Assembly: GCA_000719105.1 (NCBI GenBank)
Contig: JODX01000001.1
Span: forward strand, 806,001-870,000
Source: Streptomyces sclerotialus
GTDB taxonomy: Bacteria; Actinomycetota; Actinomycetes; Streptomycetales; Streptomycetaceae
Reading direction: 5' to 3'
Length of the DNA stretch: 64,000 bases
Part shown: positions 36,644 through 45,166 of the stretch, in pieces
How positions within the stretch are numbered: the first letter of the stretch is position 1
Layout: each line of letters opens with the position of its first letter
Notes under the pieces: generated by a model
Told to the model about the DNA's origin: nothing
The model's input: the letters and a program-made list of their open reading frames with translations, nothing else
The model's database searches: none
Position numbers and translations under genes: made by a program

Positions 36644-38005
36644 ATGGACAAGCAGCAGGAGTTCGTGCTCCGCACGCTCGAGGAGCGCGACATCCGGTTC
36701 GTACGCCTGTGGTTCACGGACGTGCTGGGCTTCCTCAAGTCCGTGGCCGTGGCCCCGGCCGAGCTGGAACAGGCCTTCGACGAGGGCATCGGCTTCGACG
36801 GCAGCGCCATCGAGGGTTTCGCCCGCGTTTACGAGTCCGACATGATCGCCAAGCCGGATCCGTCGACGTTCCAGGTCCTGCCGTGGCGCGCGGAGGCACC
36901 GGGCACGGCCCGTATGTTCTGCGACATCCTCATGCCCGACGGCTCCCCCTCCTTCGCGGACCCGCGATATGTCCTGAAGCGAGCGCTCGCCAAGGCGTCC
37001 GACCTGGGCTTCACCTTCTACACCCACCCCGAGATCGAGTTCTTCCTGCTGAAGGACAAGCCGGTCGACGGCTCGGTGCCCACTCCCGCGGACAACTCCG
37101 GCTACTTCGACCACACCCCGCAGAACATCGGCATGGACTTCCGCCGCACGGCGATCACCATGCTGGAGTCGATGGGCATCTCGGTCGAGTTCTCCCACCA
37201 CGAGGGCGCCCCCGGCCAGCAGGAGATCGACCTGCGCTACGCCGACGCGCTCTCCACCGCCGACAACGTCATGACGTTCCGCCTGATCATGAAGCAGGTG
37301 GCGCTGGAGCAGGGCGTCCAGGCGACGTTCATGCCGAAGCCGTTCTCGGAGTACCCGGGCAGCGGCATGCACACCCACCTCTCGCTCTTCGAAGGTGACC
37401 GGAACGCGTTCTACGAGTCGGGCTCGGAGTACCAGCTCTCCAAGGTCGGCCGCTCCTTCATCGCGGGCCTGCTGAAGCACGCCGCGGAGATCTCCGCGGT
37501 GACCAACCAGTGGGTCAACTCCTACAAGCGCATCTGGGGCGGCACCGAGCGCACGGCGGGCGCGGGCGGCGAGGCCCCCTCGTACATCTGCTGGGGCCAC
37601 AACAACCGCTCCGCCCTGGTCCGCGTCCCCATGTACAAGCCGGGCAAGACGGGCTCGGCCCGGGTCGAGGTCCGCTCCATCGACTCCGGCGCCAACCCGT
37701 ACCTGGCCTACGCCGTCCTCCTGGCCGCCGGCCTGAAGGGCATCGAGGAGGGCTACGAGCTCCCGCCGGGCGCCGAGGACGACGTCTGGGCCCTCTCGGA
37801 CGCCGAACGCCGCGCGATGGGCATCGAACCCCTCCCGCAGAACCTGGGCGAGGCCCTGACCCTGATGGAGCGCAGCGACCTCGTCGCCGAGACCCTCGGC
37901 GAGCACGTCTTCGACTTCTTCCTGCGCAACAAGCGGCAGGAGTGGGAGGAGTACCGGTCGGAGGTCACCGCGTTCGAGCTGCGGAAGAACTTGCCGGTGC
38001 TGTAG
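36644..38005 (+). CDS. glnA2: GlnA2-type glutamine synthetase-like gamma-glutamylpolyamine synthetase
   Basis: A 453-residue GSI-fold enzyme. Signature segments are GFDGSAIEGFARVYESDM, the metal Glu in HPEIEFFLL, the GSGMHTHLSLF ATP/glutamate region, and NRSALVRVP for glutamate/ATP binding. The protein starts MDKQQEFVLRTLEERDIRFVR with GGAAGC upstream. In S. coelicolor the gene beside glnE in this family is GlnA2, reported to glutamylate polyamines rather than ammonia, and I base the name on that context. The adenylylation motif NLYDLP of classic GS is only partly conserved (GYELPP), so control by GlnE is uncertain. Confidence 0.85.
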   Translation: MDKQQEFVLRTLEERDIRFVRLWFTDVLGFLKSVAVAPAELEQAFDEGIGFDGSAIEGFARVYESDMIAKPDPSTFQVLPWRAEAPGTARMFCDILMPDGSPSFADPRYVLKRALAKASDLGFTFYTHPEIEFFLLKDKPVDGSVPTPADNSGYFDHTPQNIGMDFRRTAITMLESMGISVEFSHHEGAPGQQEIDLRYADALSTADNVMTFRLIMKQVALEQGVQATFMPKPFSEYPGSGMHTHLSLFEGDRNAFYESGSEYQLSKVGRSFIAGLLKHAAEISAVTNQWVNSYKRIWGGTERTAGAGGEAPSYICWGHNNRSALVRVPMYKPGKTGSARVEVRSIDSGANPYLAYAVLLAAGLKGIEEGYELPPGAEDDVWALSDAERRAMGIEPLPQNLGEALTLMERSDLVAETLGEHVFDFFLRNKRQEWEEYRSEVTAFELRKNLPVL

Positions 38006-38107: not shown

Positions 38108-38554
38108 CTAGCGCTCGGCGAGCTCGGTCAACAGCTTGTGCAGCGGCTTCTCCGCACGCTGCCGGTACTCCTGGATCGCCCACCCGTTGCCGTCCGGGTC
38201 CGTGAAGTACATGAACGTGGCGCCGTCGGTGGGTGCGTACTCCACCGGCTCCGACACCTCCAGACCCCGGTCGAGCAGTTCGGCACGCGCCGCCTTGATG
38301 TCGGACACGCACAGCTGGAGGCCCCGGTAGGAGCCGGGCTGCGGCTTCGGGCCCTGCAGCGCCGCGTCCCAGAAGGCGTCTTGGGCGAGGAGGATCGAAC
38401 AGCCGGAGCCCGGGGGCGTCAGCTGGACGAGGCGCATGCCCGGGAGGACCTCCTGGTCGATGTCGACGTGGAAGCCGACCTTGTCCCGGTAGAAGTCGCG
38501 GGACCGGTCGATGTCAGTGACGGGCAGCGGGATCACTTCGAGTGTGTACTGCAT
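38108..38554 (-). CDS. VOC (glyoxalase-fold) family protein
   Basis: A 148-residue single vicinal-oxygen-chelate protein of paired beta-alpha-beta-beta-beta units: PLPVTDIDRSRDFYRDKVGF and GLQLCVSDIKAARAELLDRG, then FTDPDGNGWAIQEY with the metal-side Glu. It resembles lactoylglutathione lyase-like or antibiotic-binding proteins. The substrate is unknown. In the Streptomyces genomes I recall it sits directly beside glnE, whereas here about 3.5 kb of other DNA lies between them. Confidence 0.85.
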   Translation of the reverse strand: MQYTLEVIPLPVTDIDRSRDFYRDKVGFHVDIDQEVLPGMRLVQLTPPGSGCSILLAQDAFWDAALQGPKPQPGSYRGLQLCVSDIKAARAELLDRGLEVSEPVEYAPTDGATFMYFTDPDGNGWAIQEYRQRAEKPLHKLLTELAER

Positions 38555-38669
38555 GTCTGCTCCTCCGCATCAGGCGAGCCGGCTCCCGCCCACCCAAGCC
38601 GATGAAGCCCCCGGAGCGCCACCACCAGGACGACGATCTGTCCGGCGTCACCGGCTCTCCTCCCGGGCT

Positions 38670-38777
38670 CTGCGGTTGGGCTCGGGCCGTGCGACCTTGA
38701 TCCGATGGGTTCGGCGGATCCGTGAGGAGGCCGAGCGTGACGGCGCCGGGGCGCAGTAGCAGCACCTTCACTCGGCT
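38670..38777 (+). repeat. Left copy of the glnE leader (candidate attL scar)
   Basis: From CTGCGGTTGGGCTCG to ACCTTCACTCGGCT, this 108-base stretch aligns with the glnE leader and first codons at 42064-42205, with substitutions and a 34-base shorter middle. Similarity stops abruptly after CTCGGCT, directly before foreign sequence. The 14-base core ACCTTCACTCGGCT (38764-38777) is identical in both copies. Confidence 0.8.
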
Positions 38778-38793
38778 TAGCCGCAATCCGTAG
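38737..38793 (+). pseudogene. Orphan 5' fragment of glnE
   Basis: GTG and 17 further codons read VTAPGRSSSTFTRLSRNP and stop. The real glnE starts MTAPGRRSSTFTRLLRHGF. The ribosome binding site GGAGG is retained. The fragment is the severed head of an earlier glnE. Confidence 0.8.
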
Positions 38794-38802
38794 CTCCGAG
38801 CA

Positions 38803-39264
38803 TCACCGCGGACGCGGACGAACACACTGCGACTCCACGGGCACCCGGCACCGCACCTGCTTCCCGATGGCCGACTGCTGTACATGCCATCCGGGCGCGA
38901 GCAGGTCGACCACCCCGAGTCCCCGCCCGCCCTCCGCGTCCGCACTGTCCAGCGGCGTCTCGCGACGCCTGGTCGAGATGCCGGGATCCGGGTCGTGCAC
39001 GTTCACCGCGATGCCGTACAACGTCACGTACACCTCCGCCACGAGCGGTACGTGGTCTCCGCAAGCCCGTACGGAGTTGCCGACCAGTTCGGAGAGGACG
39101 AGCAGCACGGAGTCGACGACATCGGCAGCGAGGCCCTGAGCCAGCAGCCCGGTGCGCGCCAGCTCCCTCACGGCCCGCAGGTTGGAAGACGAAGCGCAGA
39201 AGTGCACGGCGAAGCCCTGCGGGCAGTGGCGCAGGTAGTAGCCGGGAATCGGGGTGGGGGACAT
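38803..39264 (-). CDS. RsbW/SpoIIAB-like ATP-binding protein (anti-sigma kinase type)
   Basis: A 153-residue GHKL ATPase. N-box SELVGNSVRACG, G1-box VHDPDPG (DxGxG type with a Pro), G2 GGRGLGVVDLLA. ATG 39264 follows GAGGAG. Such short ATPases in Streptomyces pair with XRE/DUF5753 and DUF397 proteins in WhiJ-like sets that control development. It is divergent from the XRE gene across 148 bases and starts the island just right of the severed glnE head. Confidence 0.85.
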   Translation of the reverse strand: MSPTPIPGYYLRHCPQGFAVHFCASSSNLRAVRELARTGLLAQGLAADVVDSVLLVLSELVGNSVRACGDHVPLVAEVYVTLYGIAVNVHDPDPGISTRRRETPLDSADAEGGRGLGVVDLLAPGWHVQQSAIGKQVRCRVPVESQCVRPRPR

Positions 39265-39372
39265 GACGTCTCCTCGACGGTGGGGGGTTGGCACGACGCC
39301 ACTTTCCTCTGGCCGCGCGCTTTTCTCCCTCGGGTAGAAAGATTTCGACCCGGACGGGTGAAGTAGTCGTGA

Positions 39373-39393
39373 CGGTGTGCGACAGGCACACCG
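39373..39393. promoter_or_regulatory. Hairpin/operator upstream of the XRE gene
   Basis: CGGTGTGC-gacag-GCACACCG, perfect eight-base arms, ending 19 bases before the XRE start. It is a good candidate operator for the XRE protein or a leader hairpin. Confidence 0.55.
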
Positions 39394-39412
39394 GTCCTGC
39401 CACACTCCGTTC

Positions 39413-40279
39413 ATGCCCAACTCGCCCCTCGTGCCGACCATTCGACGCCGCCGCCTGGGTGCCAGCCTGCGAGGCTTCCGCAGCGAAGCCGGTATGACGC
39501 TGGACAGCGCCGCAGGAGCCATGGGCTGGAAAGCGCCGAAGCTCTCGAAGATCGAAAGTGCCACCCAGTCGATCAAAGCAAGCGAGGTCGGCGCCCTCCT
39601 GAGCGTGTACGGAATCGAGGATGCCCAGGTGAAGGAGGCGCTGGGCGCTCTTGCGCAGGACGCGGGCAAAAAGGGCTGGTGGCAGACGTACAGCGCAATC
39701 GTGTCACCCGCCTACGCCGACTACATCTCTTTGGAAGCGGATGCCGAAACCATCTGCGCATGGTCGCCACTGATCATTCCTGGACTGCTTCAGACAGCCG
39801 CCTACGCGCGCGAAACCATCGCCGGCATCACAACGACACGCACACCGGAAGAAGTGGCCGCCCTGACCGAAGTGCGCATGGCCCGACAGTCCGTCCTCTC
39901 CCGCCCAGGGACGACCCTTGAACTGTGGGCGATCATCCATGAGGCCGCGCTGTACCAGCGCTTCGTCGTGCGCCCCATGACCATGCGCGAACAACTCAGG
40001 CGCCTTCTGGACGCTTCGGAGATGCCCAGTGTCACAGTCCAGTTGATGCCGCTGAACTCCACTACTCACCCCGGCGTTGTCGGAGGCTTCACCGTGACGG
40101 CATTCCCTCGGCCCATGCCTCCGATGGTGCTCTTGGAGAATCTCAGCGGCGCGACGTACGTTGAGGGCGACGACGCGACGCCTTTCACCAAGGCCTTCGA
40201 ACGCATCCGCGCGGCGGCCCTTCCGGTGGAGGACTCGCTCGCGAGGATCGCCGAGTTGGAGGAGAGACACCGCAAGTGA
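39413..40279 (+). CDS. XRE-family regulator with DUF5753 domain (WhiJ/Scr1 type)
   Basis: A 288-residue protein. HTH at residues 10-65 (RRRLGASLRGFRSEAGMTL, then KLSKIESATQSIKASEV). DUF5753 follows (WWQTYSAIVSPAYADYISLE, then IIPGLLQTAAYARETI, and LLENLSGATYVEG). This is the standard partner of DUF397 proteins in Streptomyces. The gene is visibly less GC-rich than its neighbours in wobble positions, which fits recent acquisition. It overlaps the DUF397 gene by four bases. Confidence 0.9.
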   Translation: MPNSPLVPTIRRRRLGASLRGFRSEAGMTLDSAAGAMGWKAPKLSKIESATQSIKASEVGALLSVYGIEDAQVKEALGALAQDAGKKGWWQTYSAIVSPAYADYISLEADAETICAWSPLIIPGLLQTAAYARETIAGITTTRTPEEVAALTEVRMARQSVLSRPGTTLELWAIIHEAALYQRFVVRPMTMREQLRRLLDASEMPSVTVQLMPLNSTTHPGVVGGFTVTAFPRPMPPMVLLENLSGATYVEGDDATPFTKAFERIRAAALPVEDSLARIAELEERHRK

Positions 40280-40497
40280 ATCACCCCCAGGCCGAGCTGT
40301 ACGCGTTCGACCCCACCGAGGCGATATGGCGGAAGGCGTCCGCCAGTGGAGCGGAGCACGACTGTGTTGAGGTCGCCGATCTTCCTGGCGGTGTCCGGGC
40401 AGTGCGCGACTCGAAGAATCCGACCCGTAAGCCTCTGTGTTTCAGCGCCTCGGAGTGGGCCGCCTTCCAGAGAAGCATCATCGCCGGCGAACTGTGA
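40276..40497 (+). CDS. DUF397 small protein
   Basis: A 73-residue protein from GTG 40276, translationally coupled to the XRE gene. Signature residues: WRKASASGAEHDCVEVADLP and VRDSKNP, then FSASEWAAF. DUF397 proteins act with XRE/DUF5753 partners, possibly as antagonists. With the ATPase at 38803 this makes a WhiJ-type triad. Confidence 0.9.
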   Translation: MNHPQAELYAFDPTEAIWRKASASGAEHDCVEVADLPGGVRAVRDSKNPTRKPLCFSASEWAAFQRSIIAGEL

Positions 40498-40529
40498 TTC
40501 GCCCCCGACTCCCCATCACTCAGGACCCG

Positions 40530-40785
40530 GCTCCACACGCTGCACTGCCTGCATCGGTGCATCGGGCATTAACCGCCGAGCCCACCCCGAGGATGCTTCC
40601 GCCGCAGCTCACACACCGCCGGCTCCACCTCCGCAGACGCCTGATGCGGACACGACGCCAGCCGACGAGAGCGGTCCGCCAACCCGGCGAGCCCAGGCGC
40701 TGCATACTGCGACTTCCACCCACTCACCGTCTGCCGCGACGACACCCCCAGCAATGCGGCGACCCTGACGCCACACCGGCATGAG
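40530..40785 (-). pseudogene. IS481-type transposase N-terminal remnant
   Basis: Minus-strand text VAALLGVSSRQTVSGWKSQY, then GLAGLADRSRRLASCPHQ and AEVEPAVCELRRKHPR matches the HTH and linker of IS481-family transposases. The frame shifts near 40580 and no DDE domain follows. No terminal inverted repeats are visible. Confidence 0.75.
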
Positions 40786-40834
40786 CGGTGTGTGCGGGAG
40801 CTGGACGATCGCTTGTACGGGTGATCGACGACGG

Positions 40835-41260
40835 TCAGCGCCCCGTCGCGTTGAACTGTTTGATCAGCCCGGACAGCTCCAGAAGGCTTTCCACCCGGAA
40901 GGTGGGCAGCTTCTCCGCCTCCTTACTCTTCCACTGGATCGTGGCCCACGGGCCGCGACGGACGAGCGCGGTGTGCATGCCTGCGGCGACGGCCGGGCAC
41001 ATGTCGTTGTCGACGCGGTCCCCGACGTACAGCGTCTCGTCGACGTCGGCGGGCACCGCCTCGGCGACATGGTGGAAGAACGCCGGGTCCGGCTTGCTGG
41101 CGCCCCAGTCGTCCGAGGTGCTGATCAGGTCCACATCCCCGCTGAACAGACCGCGCAGCAGGCCTCCGGCGCGCACTGTCTGGTTCCCGGCGATGCCCAG
41201 CCACATGCCGTCGGCGCGCAGCGCGGCGAGCGCATCGCGGACGTCCGGGTACAGGTCGGC
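40835..41260 (-). pseudogene. HAD hydrolase lacking its N-terminal catalytic part
   Basis: Residues ADLYPDVRDALAALRADG through LGIAGNQTVRAGGLL, ISTSDDWGASKPDPAFFHHV and LYVGDRVDNDMCPAVAAGMH read as the C-terminal two-thirds of a haloacid-dehalogenase family phosphatase. The N-terminal DxD nucleophile motif and a start codon are absent, since upstream sequence is unrelated. It cannot be catalytic. Confidence 0.8.
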
Positions 41261-41557
41261 CTCCCGAAGTGCTCCGCCTGCCCGGCCTCGGCGCGTGCCT
41301 TCCGCTCGGCGGAGCCGGGTCACTGTCGCGACTGCGCTCCGCGCTTCGCCGCTGCCGCGTAGGTCATCGCCGTCGCACTCGCCGCCGAGTAGGACGAGTA
41401 GGAACGGAAGCGACGCGTCCGGCCGCGTCCGGCAGCGGAGACGTGAACGGTACGACCCGTCCGTTGTCAAGCCACCCCGCCGATCGACGCCCGGCCGCGG
41501 TACGCCGCCCTGACAGGTGGCCGAACTGTCGCCAGGATGGGAAGCACGGACGGGCCG
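41261..41557. other. Non-coding junction inside the island
   Basis: About 300 bases between the beheaded HAD gene and the STAS gene. The left part is where HAD homology breaks off, so a junction of insertions lies here. No gene can be supported. Confidence 0.45.
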
Positions 41558-41959
41558 ATGACGGTCGGTCGTCACGGGGCGCGAGGCGAGGTGGTTGGAG
41601 CGGTACGGGTCGATCAGGGCGCCGGCTCTCGGCTGGCCATCCGTCAGGTGCATGCGGGTGGGCGCGATCTGCTGGTGTGCCCGGCGGGCGAGTTGGACCA
41701 CGAGACGGGGCAACAGCTCAGCGAGGTGTTCCTGCGGCTGGTGGACCGTCCGGGGCGCCCGGACGAGCACCGCCGAGTGTTGCTGGACCTGTCCGGCGTC
41801 GTCCGCTGCGACCGCGGTGGCCTGTTCACCCTGCTGGGCATCTGCCAGGCGCTGGACGTGGCGGGCGTCGGAATCGTGATCACCGAGCTGAGCACCGTGG
41901 TACGCCTGACGGTCGGTCACGCGGGTCTGGGCGGCAGGCTTCCCTTGCGTCGGGGGTGA
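41558..41959 (+). CDS. STAS-domain protein (anti-sigma antagonist type) without the phospho-Ser
   Basis: A protein of about 133 residues (ATG 41537 possible). STAS fold: HAGGRDLLVCPAGELDHET, LLDLSGVVRCDRGGLFTLLG, then ITELSTVVRLTVGHAG. Classic anti-anti-sigma factors have CDSSG at the end of the third strand, with Ser phosphorylated by an RsbW-type kinase. Here CDRGG replaces it, so it cannot be switched off that way. It could be permanently active, or a non-sigma STAS protein. An RsbW-like ATPase lies 2.3 kb to the left in the same island. Confidence 0.75.
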   Translation: MTVGRHGARGEVVGAVRVDQGAGSRLAIRQVHAGGRDLLVCPAGELDHETGQQLSEVFLRLVDRPGRPDEHRRVLLDLSGVVRCDRGGLFTLLGICQALDVAGVGIVITELSTVVRLTVGHAGLGGRLPLRRG

Positions 41960-42063
41960 GGGGAGGCCGGGCGTCGGGTTACTCACGGTTTCCGAACTGT
42001 CCCCCGGCAGAAGCCACCGGCATGACACCCCCGCCCCGCCCGACCGGCGCTTCCCCCAGGTAC

Positions 42064-42205
42064 TGCGGTTAGGCTCGTGGCCGTACGACCTTGATCCGGC
42101 CGTACACCTTGAGCCGTACACCTTGATCCGACGGGTCCGGCGGATCCGGTGAGGAGGAGGGGCATGACCGCGCCGGGGCGCAGAAGCAGTACCTTCACTC
42201 GGCTG
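42064..42205 (+). repeat. Right copy of the glnE leader (candidate attR) with expanded tandem motif
   Basis: 142 bases related to 38670-38777, running from CTGCGGTTAGGCTCG into codon 14 of glnE. It contains two extra copies of the motif CCGTACACCTTGA between 42080 and 42131 that the left copy lacks. The core ACCTTCACTCGGCT is at 42192-42205. Confidence 0.8.
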
Positions 42206-45166
42206 CTGCGGCACGGCTTCACCGATCCGTCGGCCGCCGAGCGGCTGCTGGAGAGCACGGAGCTGGCGGGCATACGGAACGATCCGGTGCTGCTGGAGGC
42301 CCTCGGCGCCACCGCCGATCCCGACCTCGCGCTGCTGGGACTCGTACGGCTGCTGGAGGCACAGCCCGATCCCACGGCGCGGCGGGAGCTGCTGGACACG
42401 CTCATCTCCGCCAAGCCGCTGCGCGACCGGCTGCTCGGGGTGCTCGGTGCGTCGGAGGCGCTCGGGGACCATCTCGCCCGGCATCCGCGGGACTGGCGGG
42501 CGCTCGTGACGTACGAGCCGCGGGATCTGCATCCGGGTGTGGAGGACTTCGAGCGGGGGCTCGCCGGGGCCGGGGATCCGGTGTCCCTCCGGGTGGCCTA
42601 CCGGCGGTGCCTGCTGTCGATCGCCGCCCGTGACGTGTGCGGGACCATCGACGTCGCGCAGACCGCCGCCGAGCTCGCCGACCTGGCCACCGCCACGCTG
42701 CGGGCCGCGCTCGCCATCGCCCGTACCGCCGCGCCGGAGGACGCCGCGGTGTGCCGGCTCGCCGTCATCGCGATGGGCAAGTGCGGGGGACACGAGCTCA
42801 ACTACGTGTCCGACGTCGACGTGATCTTCGTGGGCGAGCCCGCCGAGGGGGCCGACGAGCAGAAGGCCGTCAAGGCCGCCGGCCGGCTCGCCGCCCACAT
42901 GATGCGCATCTGCTCGCAGTCGACCGTCGAGGGCAGCATCTGGCCCGTCGACGCCAATCTGCGGCCCGAAGGGCGCAACGGGCCGCTCGTGCGGACGCTC
43001 GCCTCCCACCTCGCCTACTACCAACGGTGGGCCAAGACCTGGGAGTTCCAGGCCCTGCTCAAGGCGCGGCCCGTGGCCGGGGACGCCGAGCTCGGCGCCC
43101 AGTACGTCGCCACGCTCGCGCCCCTCGTCTGGCAGGCGGCCGAGCGTGAGAACTTCGTCGCCGACGTGCAGAAGATGCGGCGGAGAGTCGTGGAGAACAT
43201 TCCTGCCGGTGAGGTCGAGCGGGAGCTGAAGCTCGGGCCCGGCGGGCTGCGGGACGTCGAGTTCGCCGTGCAGCTGCTGCAGCTCGTGCACGGGCGCGCG
43301 GACACGTCGCTGCGCAGCGGCACCACCCTCGACGCGCTGCGGGCGCTCGCCGAGGGCGGGTATGTGGGGCGGGCCGACGCCGAGCAGCTCGACCAGGCGT
43401 ACCGGTTCCTCAGGTCCATGGAGCACCGGATCCAGCTGTACCGGCTGCGCCGCACCCACCTCCTGCCCGAGGCCGAGGCCGATCTGCGGCGCCTCGGGCG
43501 GTCGCTGGGGCTGCGCACGGAACCCGTCCAGGGGCTGCTGCGGGAGTGGAAGCGGCACGCGGCCGCGGTGCGGCGGCTGCACGAGAAGCTGTTCTACCGG
43601 CCGTTGCTCGACGCCGTCGCCCAGCTCGCGCCCGGCGAGGCCCGGCTGAGTGCCGGAGCCGCCCGGGAGCGGCTCGTCGCGCTCGGGTACGCGGACCCGG
43701 CGGCGGCGCTACGGCATCTGGAGGCGCTGGCGTCGGGCGTGTCGCGCAAGGCGGCGATCCAGCGGACGCTGCTGCCGGTGATGCTGGGGTGGTTCGCCGA
43801 CTCGGCGGACCCGGACGCGGGGCTGCTCAACTTCCGCAAGGTGTCCGACGCCCTGGGCAGGACACCCTGGTACCTGCGGCTGCTCCGGGACGAGGGGGCC
43901 GCCGCCGAGAACCTCGCGCGCGTGCTGTCCGCCGGCCGACTGGCCCCCGACCTGCTGATGCGGGCCCCCGAGGCCGTCGCGCTGCTCGGCGACGGGGACG
44001 GCGGCCGCGGCGGACTCGAACCGCGGGGGCGGGCCCAGCTCGAGCAGGAGATACTCGCCGCCGTCGGGCGCGCCGACGGGGCCCGGCAGGCGGTCACCGC
44101 CGCGCGCGGGGTGCGGCGCCGCGAACTGTTCCGTACGTCCGCCGCGGACATCGTCGGCTCGTACGGCACCGACGGGTCGCCGGGCGACGTCGACCACGGC
44201 CGGCTGGTGGACCTGGTCGGCGACGCGGTGTCGGACCTGACGGCGGCGACGCTGGCCGGGACGTTGCGGGCCGTGGTGCAGGAGCACTACGGGGACACGC
44301 TGCCCACCCGCTTCGCCGTGATCGGCATGGGACGGTTCGGCGGGCACGAGCTGGGCTACGGTTCCGACGCCGACGTGCTGTTCGTGCACGAGCCGTGGGA
44401 GGGCACCGACGAGCAGGAGGCCGCGCGGGCCGCGAACACGGTCGTCGCGGAGATGCGGCGGCTTCTCCAGGTCCCGAGCACCGACCCGCCGCTGCTGATC
44501 GACGCCGACCTGCGGCCCGAGGGCAAGTCAGGGCCGCTGGTGCGGACCCTGAAGTCGTACGAGGCGTACTACCGGCGGTGGTCGCTGGTGTGGGAGTCGC
44601 AGGCGCTGCTGCGGGCCGAGTTCGTCGCGGGCGACGAGGACCTGGGGCGGCGGTTCACCGAGCTGATCGATCCCCTGCGCTATCCGCGGCAGGGGCTCGG
44701 GGACGACGCCGTACGGGACATCCGGCGGCTGAAGGCGCGCATGGAGTCCGAGCGGCTGCCGCGCGGCGCCGATCCGACGCTGCACACCAAGCTGGGGCGC
44801 GGCGGGCTGTCCGACGTCGAGTGGACCGTGCAGCTGATGCAGTTGCGGCACGGCGCCGGGGAGCCGGGGCTGCGGACCACGCGGACCCGGGCGGGGCTGG
44901 CCGCGGCGCGTGCCGCCGGGCTGGTCCCCGAGGAGGACGCCGCGACGCTGGACGAGGCCTGGGTGCTGGCCACCCGGGTGCGCAACGCCGTGATGCTGGT
45001 GCGCGGGCGGGCCGGGGACACGTTCCCCTCGGACGCGCGCGAGCTGGGCGCCGTGGGCCGCTACCTCGGGTACGGCCCCGGGCACGTGGGGGACATGCTG
45101 GACGACTACCGGAGGGTCACGCGGCGCGCTCGGGCTGTGGTGGAGTCCCTGTTCTACGGGACGTAG
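42164..45166 (+). CDS. glnE: Bifunctional glutamine synthetase adenylyltransferase/deadenylase
   Basis: A 1000-residue enzyme that adds and removes AMP on glutamine synthetase. ATG 42164 follows GAGGAGGAGG. Two nucleotidyltransferase domains: the N-terminal deadenylase-type with GGHELNYVSDVDVIFVGE near residue 208 and the C-terminal adenylylase with GGHELGYGSDADVLFVHE near 727, joined by the regulatory helical linker. Length is usual for actinobacteria. The promoter, leader and first 14 codons lie in the right-hand repeat, so they may have been supplied by the island rather than by the ancestral gene. Confidence 0.95.
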   Translation: MTAPGRRSSTFTRLLRHGFTDPSAAERLLESTELAGIRNDPVLLEALGATADPDLALLGLVRLLEAQPDPTARRELLDTLISAKPLRDRLLGVLGASEALGDHLARHPRDWRALVTYEPRDLHPGVEDFERGLAGAGDPVSLRVAYRRCLLSIAARDVCGTIDVAQTAAELADLATATLRAALAIARTAAPEDAAVCRLAVIAMGKCGGHELNYVSDVDVIFVGEPAEGADEQKAVKAAGRLAAHMMRICSQSTVEGSIWPVDANLRPEGRNGPLVRTLASHLAYYQRWAKTWEFQALLKARPVAGDAELGAQYVATLAPLVWQAAERENFVADVQKMRRRVVENIPAGEVERELKLGPGGLRDVEFAVQLLQLVHGRADTSLRSGTTLDALRALAEGGYVGRADAEQLDQAYRFLRSMEHRIQLYRLRRTHLLPEAEADLRRLGRSLGLRTEPVQGLLREWKRHAAAVRRLHEKLFYRPLLDAVAQLAPGEARLSAGAARERLVALGYADPAAALRHLEALASGVSRKAAIQRTLLPVMLGWFADSADPDAGLLNFRKVSDALGRTPWYLRLLRDEGAAAENLARVLSAGRLAPDLLMRAPEAVALLGDGDGGRGGLEPRGRAQLEQEILAAVGRADGARQAVTAARGVRRRELFRTSAADIVGSYGTDGSPGDVDHGRLVDLVGDAVSDLTAATLAGTLRAVVQEHYGDTLPTRFAVIGMGRFGGHELGYGSDADVLFVHEPWEGTDEQEAARAANTVVAEMRRLLQVPSTDPPLLIDADLRPEGKSGPLVRTLKSYEAYYRRWSLVWESQALLRAEFVAGDEDLGRRFTELIDPLRYPRQGLGDDAVRDIRRLKARMESERLPRGADPTLHTKLGRGGLSDVEWTVQLMQLRHGAGEPGLRTTRTRAGLAAARAAGLVPEEDAATLDEAWVLATRVRNAVMLVRGRAGDTFPSDARELGAVGRYLGYGPGHVGDMLDDYRRVTRRARAVVESLFYGT

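What the first reader, a model, noticed from the sequence alone, without database searches (positions are those of the whole stretch)
38668..42205. Island bounded by duplicated glnE leaders: probable integration that replaced the glnE 5' end
The glnE leader plus first 14 codons occurs twice in the same orientation (38670-38777 and 42064-42205). The copies have diverged by substitutions and a 34-base indel, and similarity stops sharply at the end of a shared 14-base core, ACCTTCACTCGGCT. Left of this the normal neighbour (VOC gene) resumes, and right of it glnE continues. Between the copies lie accessory genes. This is the architecture of an element that crosses over inside the start of an essential gene and brings its own promoter and first codons to keep the gene alive, the 5' mirror of elements that restore tRNA 3' ends. 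I know of no described integrase using glnE. No integrase gene remains here, so the element would be decayed, or the segment may be one of several accretions.
Basis: partly seen in the sequence, partly recalled or inferred. Interest (0 to 1): 0.82.

Follow-up and report, generated by a model that had tools for sequence, protein, structure and literature searches.

The report
Duplicated glnE start flanking inserted DNA
In one Streptomyces genome the start of the nitrogen-control gene glnE occurs twice, a worn-out native copy and a seemingly working one, with about 3.3 kb of mixed DNA between them; it is most likely an insertion scar built up in steps, not a new kind of mobile element.

Summary
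The duplication is real: 37 of 41 coding bases match, and similarity runs left to about 38608/42001. Copy 1 is the native glnE start: its flank aligns through to the VOC gene with an intact VOC-glnE junction, its 183-bp gap fits the 7 shortest of 38 relatives (148-213 bp), and its -10-like box is decayed. Copy 2 is intact and precedes glnE. So DNA did enter inside codon 14. An unknown glnE-specific integrase is not supported: no leader-only copy was found in 391 other genus genomes or, in a cut list, 393 other family genomes; no tyrosine-integrase match lies on the contig; core and inverted repeat are not beyond chance; the cargo is a patchwork. Close homologues of the HTH regulator and GlnE fall on contigs of identical length in two relatives, so the left part is probably old, while the STAS gene has no close homologue. 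Best reading: an old insertion with duplication of the glnE start by repair or homology-assisted recombination, enlarged later. Elements replacing a gene's 5' end are already known (dusA, prfC).

The parts
36644..38005 (+). glutamine synthetase-type gene, left neighbour
   Evidence: Pfam Gln-synt_C/N; a match upstream of glnE in 60 of 80 relatives, some partial or inverted
38108..38554 (-). VOC (glyoxalase-fold) gene, native left neighbour
   Evidence: Pfam PF00903; orthologue (at least 60% identity, same orientation) upstream of glnE in 38 of 80 relatives
38608..38777 (+). copy 1: native VOC-glnE intergenic, decayed promoter and the first 41 coding bases (38737-38777) of glnE; relic
   Evidence: 38500-38777 aligns with L092 at E 4e-26; TGGGCT where 109 of 115 leaders hold TA[GC]GCT; reads 18 codons then stop
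38803..39264 (-). HATPase_c_2 (anti-sigma-type kinase) gene
   Evidence: Pfam PF13581; proposed start
39413..40279 (+). HTH_31 + DUF5753 regulator
   Evidence: close homologues 93-96%
40276..40497 (+). DUF397 gene
40587..40769 (-). IS481-family transposase fragment
   Evidence: NCBIfam NF033577 E 1.6e-10, 41 bits, below the whole-protein cut-off as expected of a 61-residue piece; coordinates; DNA 40573-40764 repeated in other genomes
40835..41311 (-). HAD hydrolase gene without its N-terminal part (pseudogene)
   Evidence: relatives carry an extra N-terminal part of the type MIRAVVFDVGECLVDET; the fragment has no internal stop
41537..41959 (+). STAS-domain gene (anti-sigma antagonist-like)
   Evidence: one homologue besides itself, 57% over 69%
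42001..42204 (+). copy 2: glnE leader plus the first 41 coding bases, with a local 34-base repeat; presumed working
   Evidence: -10-like TAGGCT intact
42164..45166 (+). glnE, intact (1000 aa)
   Evidence: Pfam PF03710

Best explanation
The structure is an insertion scar at the start of glnE, not the footprint of a dedicated element. In an ancestor with VOC directly upstream of glnE (supported by comparison), DNA joined within codon 14 of glnE while a second copy of the leader and first codons remained fused to the gene (seen in the sequence). I infer that this arose by error-prone repair or homology-assisted illegitimate recombination: either a staggered break filled in and joined to captured DNA, or donor DNA with its own leader recombining within glnE while its other end was joined without homology. 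Copy 2 presumably kept glnE expressed; copy 1, no longer selected, lost its -10 box. The left module is probably old and shared by a small clade; the IS481 fragment, headless HAD gene and STAS gene were probably added later (inferred).
For: Copy 1 native. Copy 1 promoter decayed. Gene content left of glnE varies in relatives without a second leader in the DNA held, so this place takes up DNA by other routes. Patchwork cargo. No second use of the site found. Two strata: HTH and GlnE homologues share longest-contig lengths 286,506 and 13,527, but there is no close STAS homologue. Both copies hold GGATCCG(G)TGAGGAGG, seen in no locus of another genome among the 207 held, which fits a local or close-kin source of copy 2.
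Against: The left junction lies in coding sequence and the replacement leader is in frame, as a 5'-end element would leave it. The kinship of the copies is weak: FastTree joined them with local support 0.907, but on a trimmed alignment 23 of 60 bootstraps did, and 6 of 60 without the motif columns; by plain identity copy 2 is fifth closest to copy 1 and copy 1 tenth closest to copy 2, of 114. No DNA of the close relatives could be fetched, so sharing by a clade rests on matching contig lengths, and the repair step itself is inferred.
Confidence: 0.55

Rival explanations
1. Decayed site-specific element: an integrase recombined a glnE-like attP (leader plus 14 codons) with attB at codon 14, replacing the 5' end as in dusA islands; integrase and element core were later lost.
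For: Native left copy, intact right copy, in-frame join, shared 14-mer found only twice in the genome, uninterrupted junctions in other species.
Against: No leader-only copy found in other genomes (capped lists), nor in viral, plasmid or phage sets; no Phage_integrase match on the contig (serine integrases not searched); the inverted repeat around the core is matched or beaten by 19 of 118 blocks of glnE for 12-base arms and 28 of 118 for 9-base arms; core identity has a chance of about 0.08.
Confidence: 0.17
2. Allelic replacement (a sub-case of the best explanation; these odds are part of its 0.55): DNA from a sister strain that already carried the cargo upstream of its own glnE recombined by homology inside glnE, its other end joining illegitimately at codon 14 of the resident gene.
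For: Copy 2 is a complete ordinary leader whose upstream similarity to relatives goes to about 42017-42034; the HAD fragment still reads open with dN/dS 0.13-0.33, so it looks younger than the 14-22% divergence between the copies would suggest.
Against: No donor found; the nearest relative differs from block to block of glnE without clear pattern, and with relatives at 83-87% the test is weak.
Confidence: 0.3
3. Tandem duplication of the glnE start first, with cargo inserted between the copies afterwards, in several steps.
For: Shared motif in both copies only; patchwork cargo.
Against: Needs the first insertion to fall exactly at the duplication joint; no bare tandem duplication was seen in the 80 glnE loci.
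Confidence: 0.2

Closest known systems
dusA-associated genomic islands (Farrugia et al. 2015, PMC4482086; abstract and sections 15 and 18 read)
   Same: Insertion within the 5' end of a housekeeping gene, whose first codons and promoter are replaced by incoming sequence
   Different: Those have the integrase as the one universal feature and semiconserved 21-bp attachment repeats (logo from 94 islands); here neither is seen
IMEVchUSA3 in dusA, and ICE SXT in prfC (PMC8409611, passages read; the SXT paper itself not read)
   Different: IMEVchUSA3 is mobilisable, with integrase and directionality factor; SXT is described there as an ICE
PAISt of Streptomyces turgidiscabies, at the 3' end of bacA (PMC4057263, start of abstract in the search listing only)
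   Same: A Streptomyces island using a protein gene as target
   Different: 3' end, 8-bp palindrome, known site-specific recombination
ATPase - HTH/DUF5753 - DUF397 regulator modules of Streptomyces
   Same: Same three genes; 76-78% DNA identity in G768 and G377
   Different: No glnE match in the 20 kb fetched around them

Membership tests
5'-end-specific integrative element (dusA/prfC type) | integrase gene beside an attachment site | tested here: not met
   the island genes found are other families; none of 7 Phage_integrase matches in the genome is on contig C1; serine integrases not searched genome-wide
5'-end-specific integrative element (dusA/prfC type) | target gene's 5' end replaced by a second, intact one | tested here: met
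   expression not tested
5'-end-specific integrative element (dusA/prfC type) | same site used in other hosts or by other cargo | tested here: not met
   no leader-only copy found, with capped lists and two scored candidates per genome; G096 and G360 carry a second near full-length glnE
5'-end-specific integrative element (dusA/prfC type) | uninterrupted target site exists | tested here: met
   7 of 38 relatives with a VOC orthologue have VOC-glnE gaps of 148-213 bp; L092 aligns through; not tested in close relatives
5'-end-specific integrative element (dusA/prfC type) | excision as a circle | not testable with these tools
   needs PCR
5'-end-specific integrative element (dusA/prfC type) | recombinase core with inverted arms | tested here: inconclusive
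   best arms 7 of 9 and 9 of 12; equalled or beaten in 28 of 118 and 19 of 118 blocks of glnE

The most novel reading that the evidence does not exclude
A family of integrative elements of the Streptomyces ruber group uses the first 14 codons of glnE as attachment site and restores the gene with its own leader; the window holds a decayed member, and intact members with an integrase still exist in unsampled close relatives.
Probability: 0.13. Interest if true: 0.55.

Novelty: new member of a known kind. Interest (0 to 1): 0.27.

Why it matters
It shows a regulatory gene surviving an insertion inside its coding start because a second leader came along, and it marks the glnA-VOC-glnE interval as a variable place in Streptomyces. 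If an integrase using glnE were found in the relatives, it would give a new integration site in an industrially used genus; on present evidence it is a scar.

Tried and rejected
Second matches looked like leader duplications in 116 further genomes (counted by eye from the table). Re-searched with a shorter query (60, 56; 5 and 4 of them then had no match), the second matches were short and did not pass query position 79, that is, at most the first three bases of the core, except in G096 and G360, which carry a second near full-length glnE. Genomes with two or three matches were not re-searched.

Foreign glnE: nearest relatives by segment gave no clear pattern, at low resolution.

Sister relation of the copies: supported at first (0.907), weak after trimming; I keep only the shared motif.

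Attachment-site inverted repeat: not above background. Module relatives in G377, G768, G391 and G202 have no glnE within the 20 kb fetched. The STAS and HAD genes have no relative in the 80 glnE loci at E 1e-3. Further draws to reach S. ruber mostly or wholly returned known genomes. An IQ-TREE run hit the time limit and gave nothing.

Full report
The window lies in a genome (G000: 7.02 Mb, 92 contigs, completeness 85%) on an 886,692-base contig; its glnE relatives are Streptomyces, with one record titled Kitasatospora. The left neighbours are a glutamine synthetase-type gene (36644-38005) and a VOC gene (38108-38554, minus); glnE runs 42164-45166.

Observation. The glnE leader and first 41 coding bases occur twice, ending at 38777 and 42204. 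The coding parts match at 37 of 41 bases and the last 56 bases at 49 of 56. The own-genome match has E 2e-23. With loose scoring the similarity continues left to 38608/42001. Copy 1 reads VTAPGRSSSTFTRLSRNP and stops.

Which copy is native? I fetched 80 glnE loci with up to 10 kb of flank, some much shorter. In 38 of 80 a VOC orthologue (at least 60% identity, same orientation; VOC genes below 60% were left out) lies upstream; the gap to glnE runs from 148 bp to 4.5 kb, and in 7 of the 38 it is 148-213 bp. In the window the gap from VOC to copy 1 is 183 bp. Copy 1 with its flank (38500-38777) aligns end to end with the intact VOC-glnE junction of Streptomyces sp. SID12501 (L092, 69% over 319 columns, E 4e-26). 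For the leaders I used 151 loci, of which 122 gave a plus-strand glnE start (the rest were dropped) and, with the two copies, 115 distinct sequences. A TA[GC]GCT box is present somewhere in 109 of 115, copy 2 included; copy 1 has TGGGCT; the other five without it are L010, L178, L052, L122 and L175. Copy 1 is thus the native, decayed start, and copy 2 presumably the working one; expression was not tested.

Is the site used elsewhere? Gene content left of glnE differs strongly among the 80 loci, but none shows a second leader within the DNA held. Of 392 genus genomes, G000 included, 367 match the leader; the 116 with two matches, apart from G000, were re-searched. Only in G096 and G360 does a second match pass the core, and both carry a second near full-length glnE. 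A family draw of 394 genomes, overlapping the first, gave matches in 308 and listed no second leader outside G000 (the list was cut, and genomes with several matches were not re-searched). Only two candidates per genome were scored. Viral contigs (one exact pattern), plasmids and phages gave nothing. Of seven Phage_integrase matches in the genome none is on contig C1; serine integrases were not searched genome-wide.

Is the core special? The 14-mer occurs exactly twice in the genome. It is at the glnE start in 1 of 80 relatives, and in 10 loci of about 8 other genomes among the 207 held (L006, L008/L193, L024/L038, L032, L033, L042, L116, L183). Its chance as an identical end run is about 0.08. 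The inverted repeat around it (7 of 9, 9 of 12, 9 of 13) is equalled or beaten in 28, 19 and 35 of 118 blocks of glnE.

The cargo is a patchwork: HATPase, HTH/DUF5753 and DUF397 genes, with 76-78% relatives in G768 and G377 that have no glnE within the 20 kb fetched; an IS481-type fragment whose DNA recurs in about 20 genomes of the listed rows; a HAD gene lacking its N-terminal part, with 71-82% protein identity to 17 relatives; and a STAS gene with one homologue found, 57% over 69% of its length, in S. minutiscleroticus (that search needs shared words). The HAD fragment has no internal stop, and its dN/dS against 12 relatives aligned without gaps is 0.13-0.33, against 0.09-0.31 in 15 pairs among six of them. 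I take it as a recent pseudogene.

Age. The HTH protein has homologues at 96, 94 and 93%, then 84%; GlnE at 96, 93, 92 and 92%, then 89%. The 94% HTH and the 93% GlnE (S. ruber) have the same longest-contig length, 286,506; the 93% HTH (Streptomyces sp. CRN 30) and a 92% GlnE share 13,527. I infer that the module lies near glnE in both. Their DNA could not be reached: further draws returned mostly or only known genomes. With no close STAS homologue, the right part is probably younger, or was lost in the relatives.

Kinship of the copies. Both hold GGATCCG(G)TGAGGAGG, found in no other genome's locus among the 207 held. A FastTree of 115 leaders joined them (local support 0.907); on trimmed columns the bootstrap was 23 of 60, and 6 of 60 without the motif columns. 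By plain identity copy 2 is only fifth closest to copy 1, and copy 1 tenth closest to copy 2, of 114. So a close-kin source is suggested, not shown.

Conclusion. DNA entered the start of glnE and a second leader kept the gene going. Everything beyond that, a dedicated integrase above all, lacks support; insertion with repair or homology-assisted recombination, followed by accretion, needs no unknown machinery. The general idea is in print: dusA islands replace the 5' end of dusA (PMC4482086, abstract and sections 15, 18), IMEVchUSA3 supplies promoter and N-terminus, and SXT is said to do so in prfC (PMC8409611, passages). Searches 'glnE + Streptomyces + integration site' (2 papers) and 'glnE + genomic island + integrase' (9 papers) listed no title or abstract opening on a glnE attachment site; I did not read those papers. 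glnE deletion strains of S. coelicolor exist (PMC11356632, passages), so the gene is not essential there.

Noticed in passing
L063-L142, upstream of glnE: The interval between glnA/VOC and glnE is highly variable among Streptomyces species (VOC-glnE gaps from 148 bp to 4.5 kb, many different genes), while several genes to the right of glnE recur in families of 67-70 members across the 80 loci.
   Followed up: partly
L174 (G096), L175 (G360): Two genomes carry a second near full-length glnE, 67-83% identical to the window's protein, in another part of the chromosome.
   Followed up: partly
window 41537-41959: The STAS-domain protein has only one detected homologue besides itself in the protein search (S. 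minutiscleroticus, 57% over 69%).
   Followed up: partly
window 42098-42135: Copy 2 of the leader holds a local repeat of CGTACACCTTGA units; leaders of other species also vary by repeats of a similar unit at this place (for example L071, L178).
   Followed up: no
window 40573-40764: IS481-type fragment whose DNA recurs in about 20 Streptomyces genomes of the listed rows, in one or two copies, at 78-88% identity.
   Followed up: no
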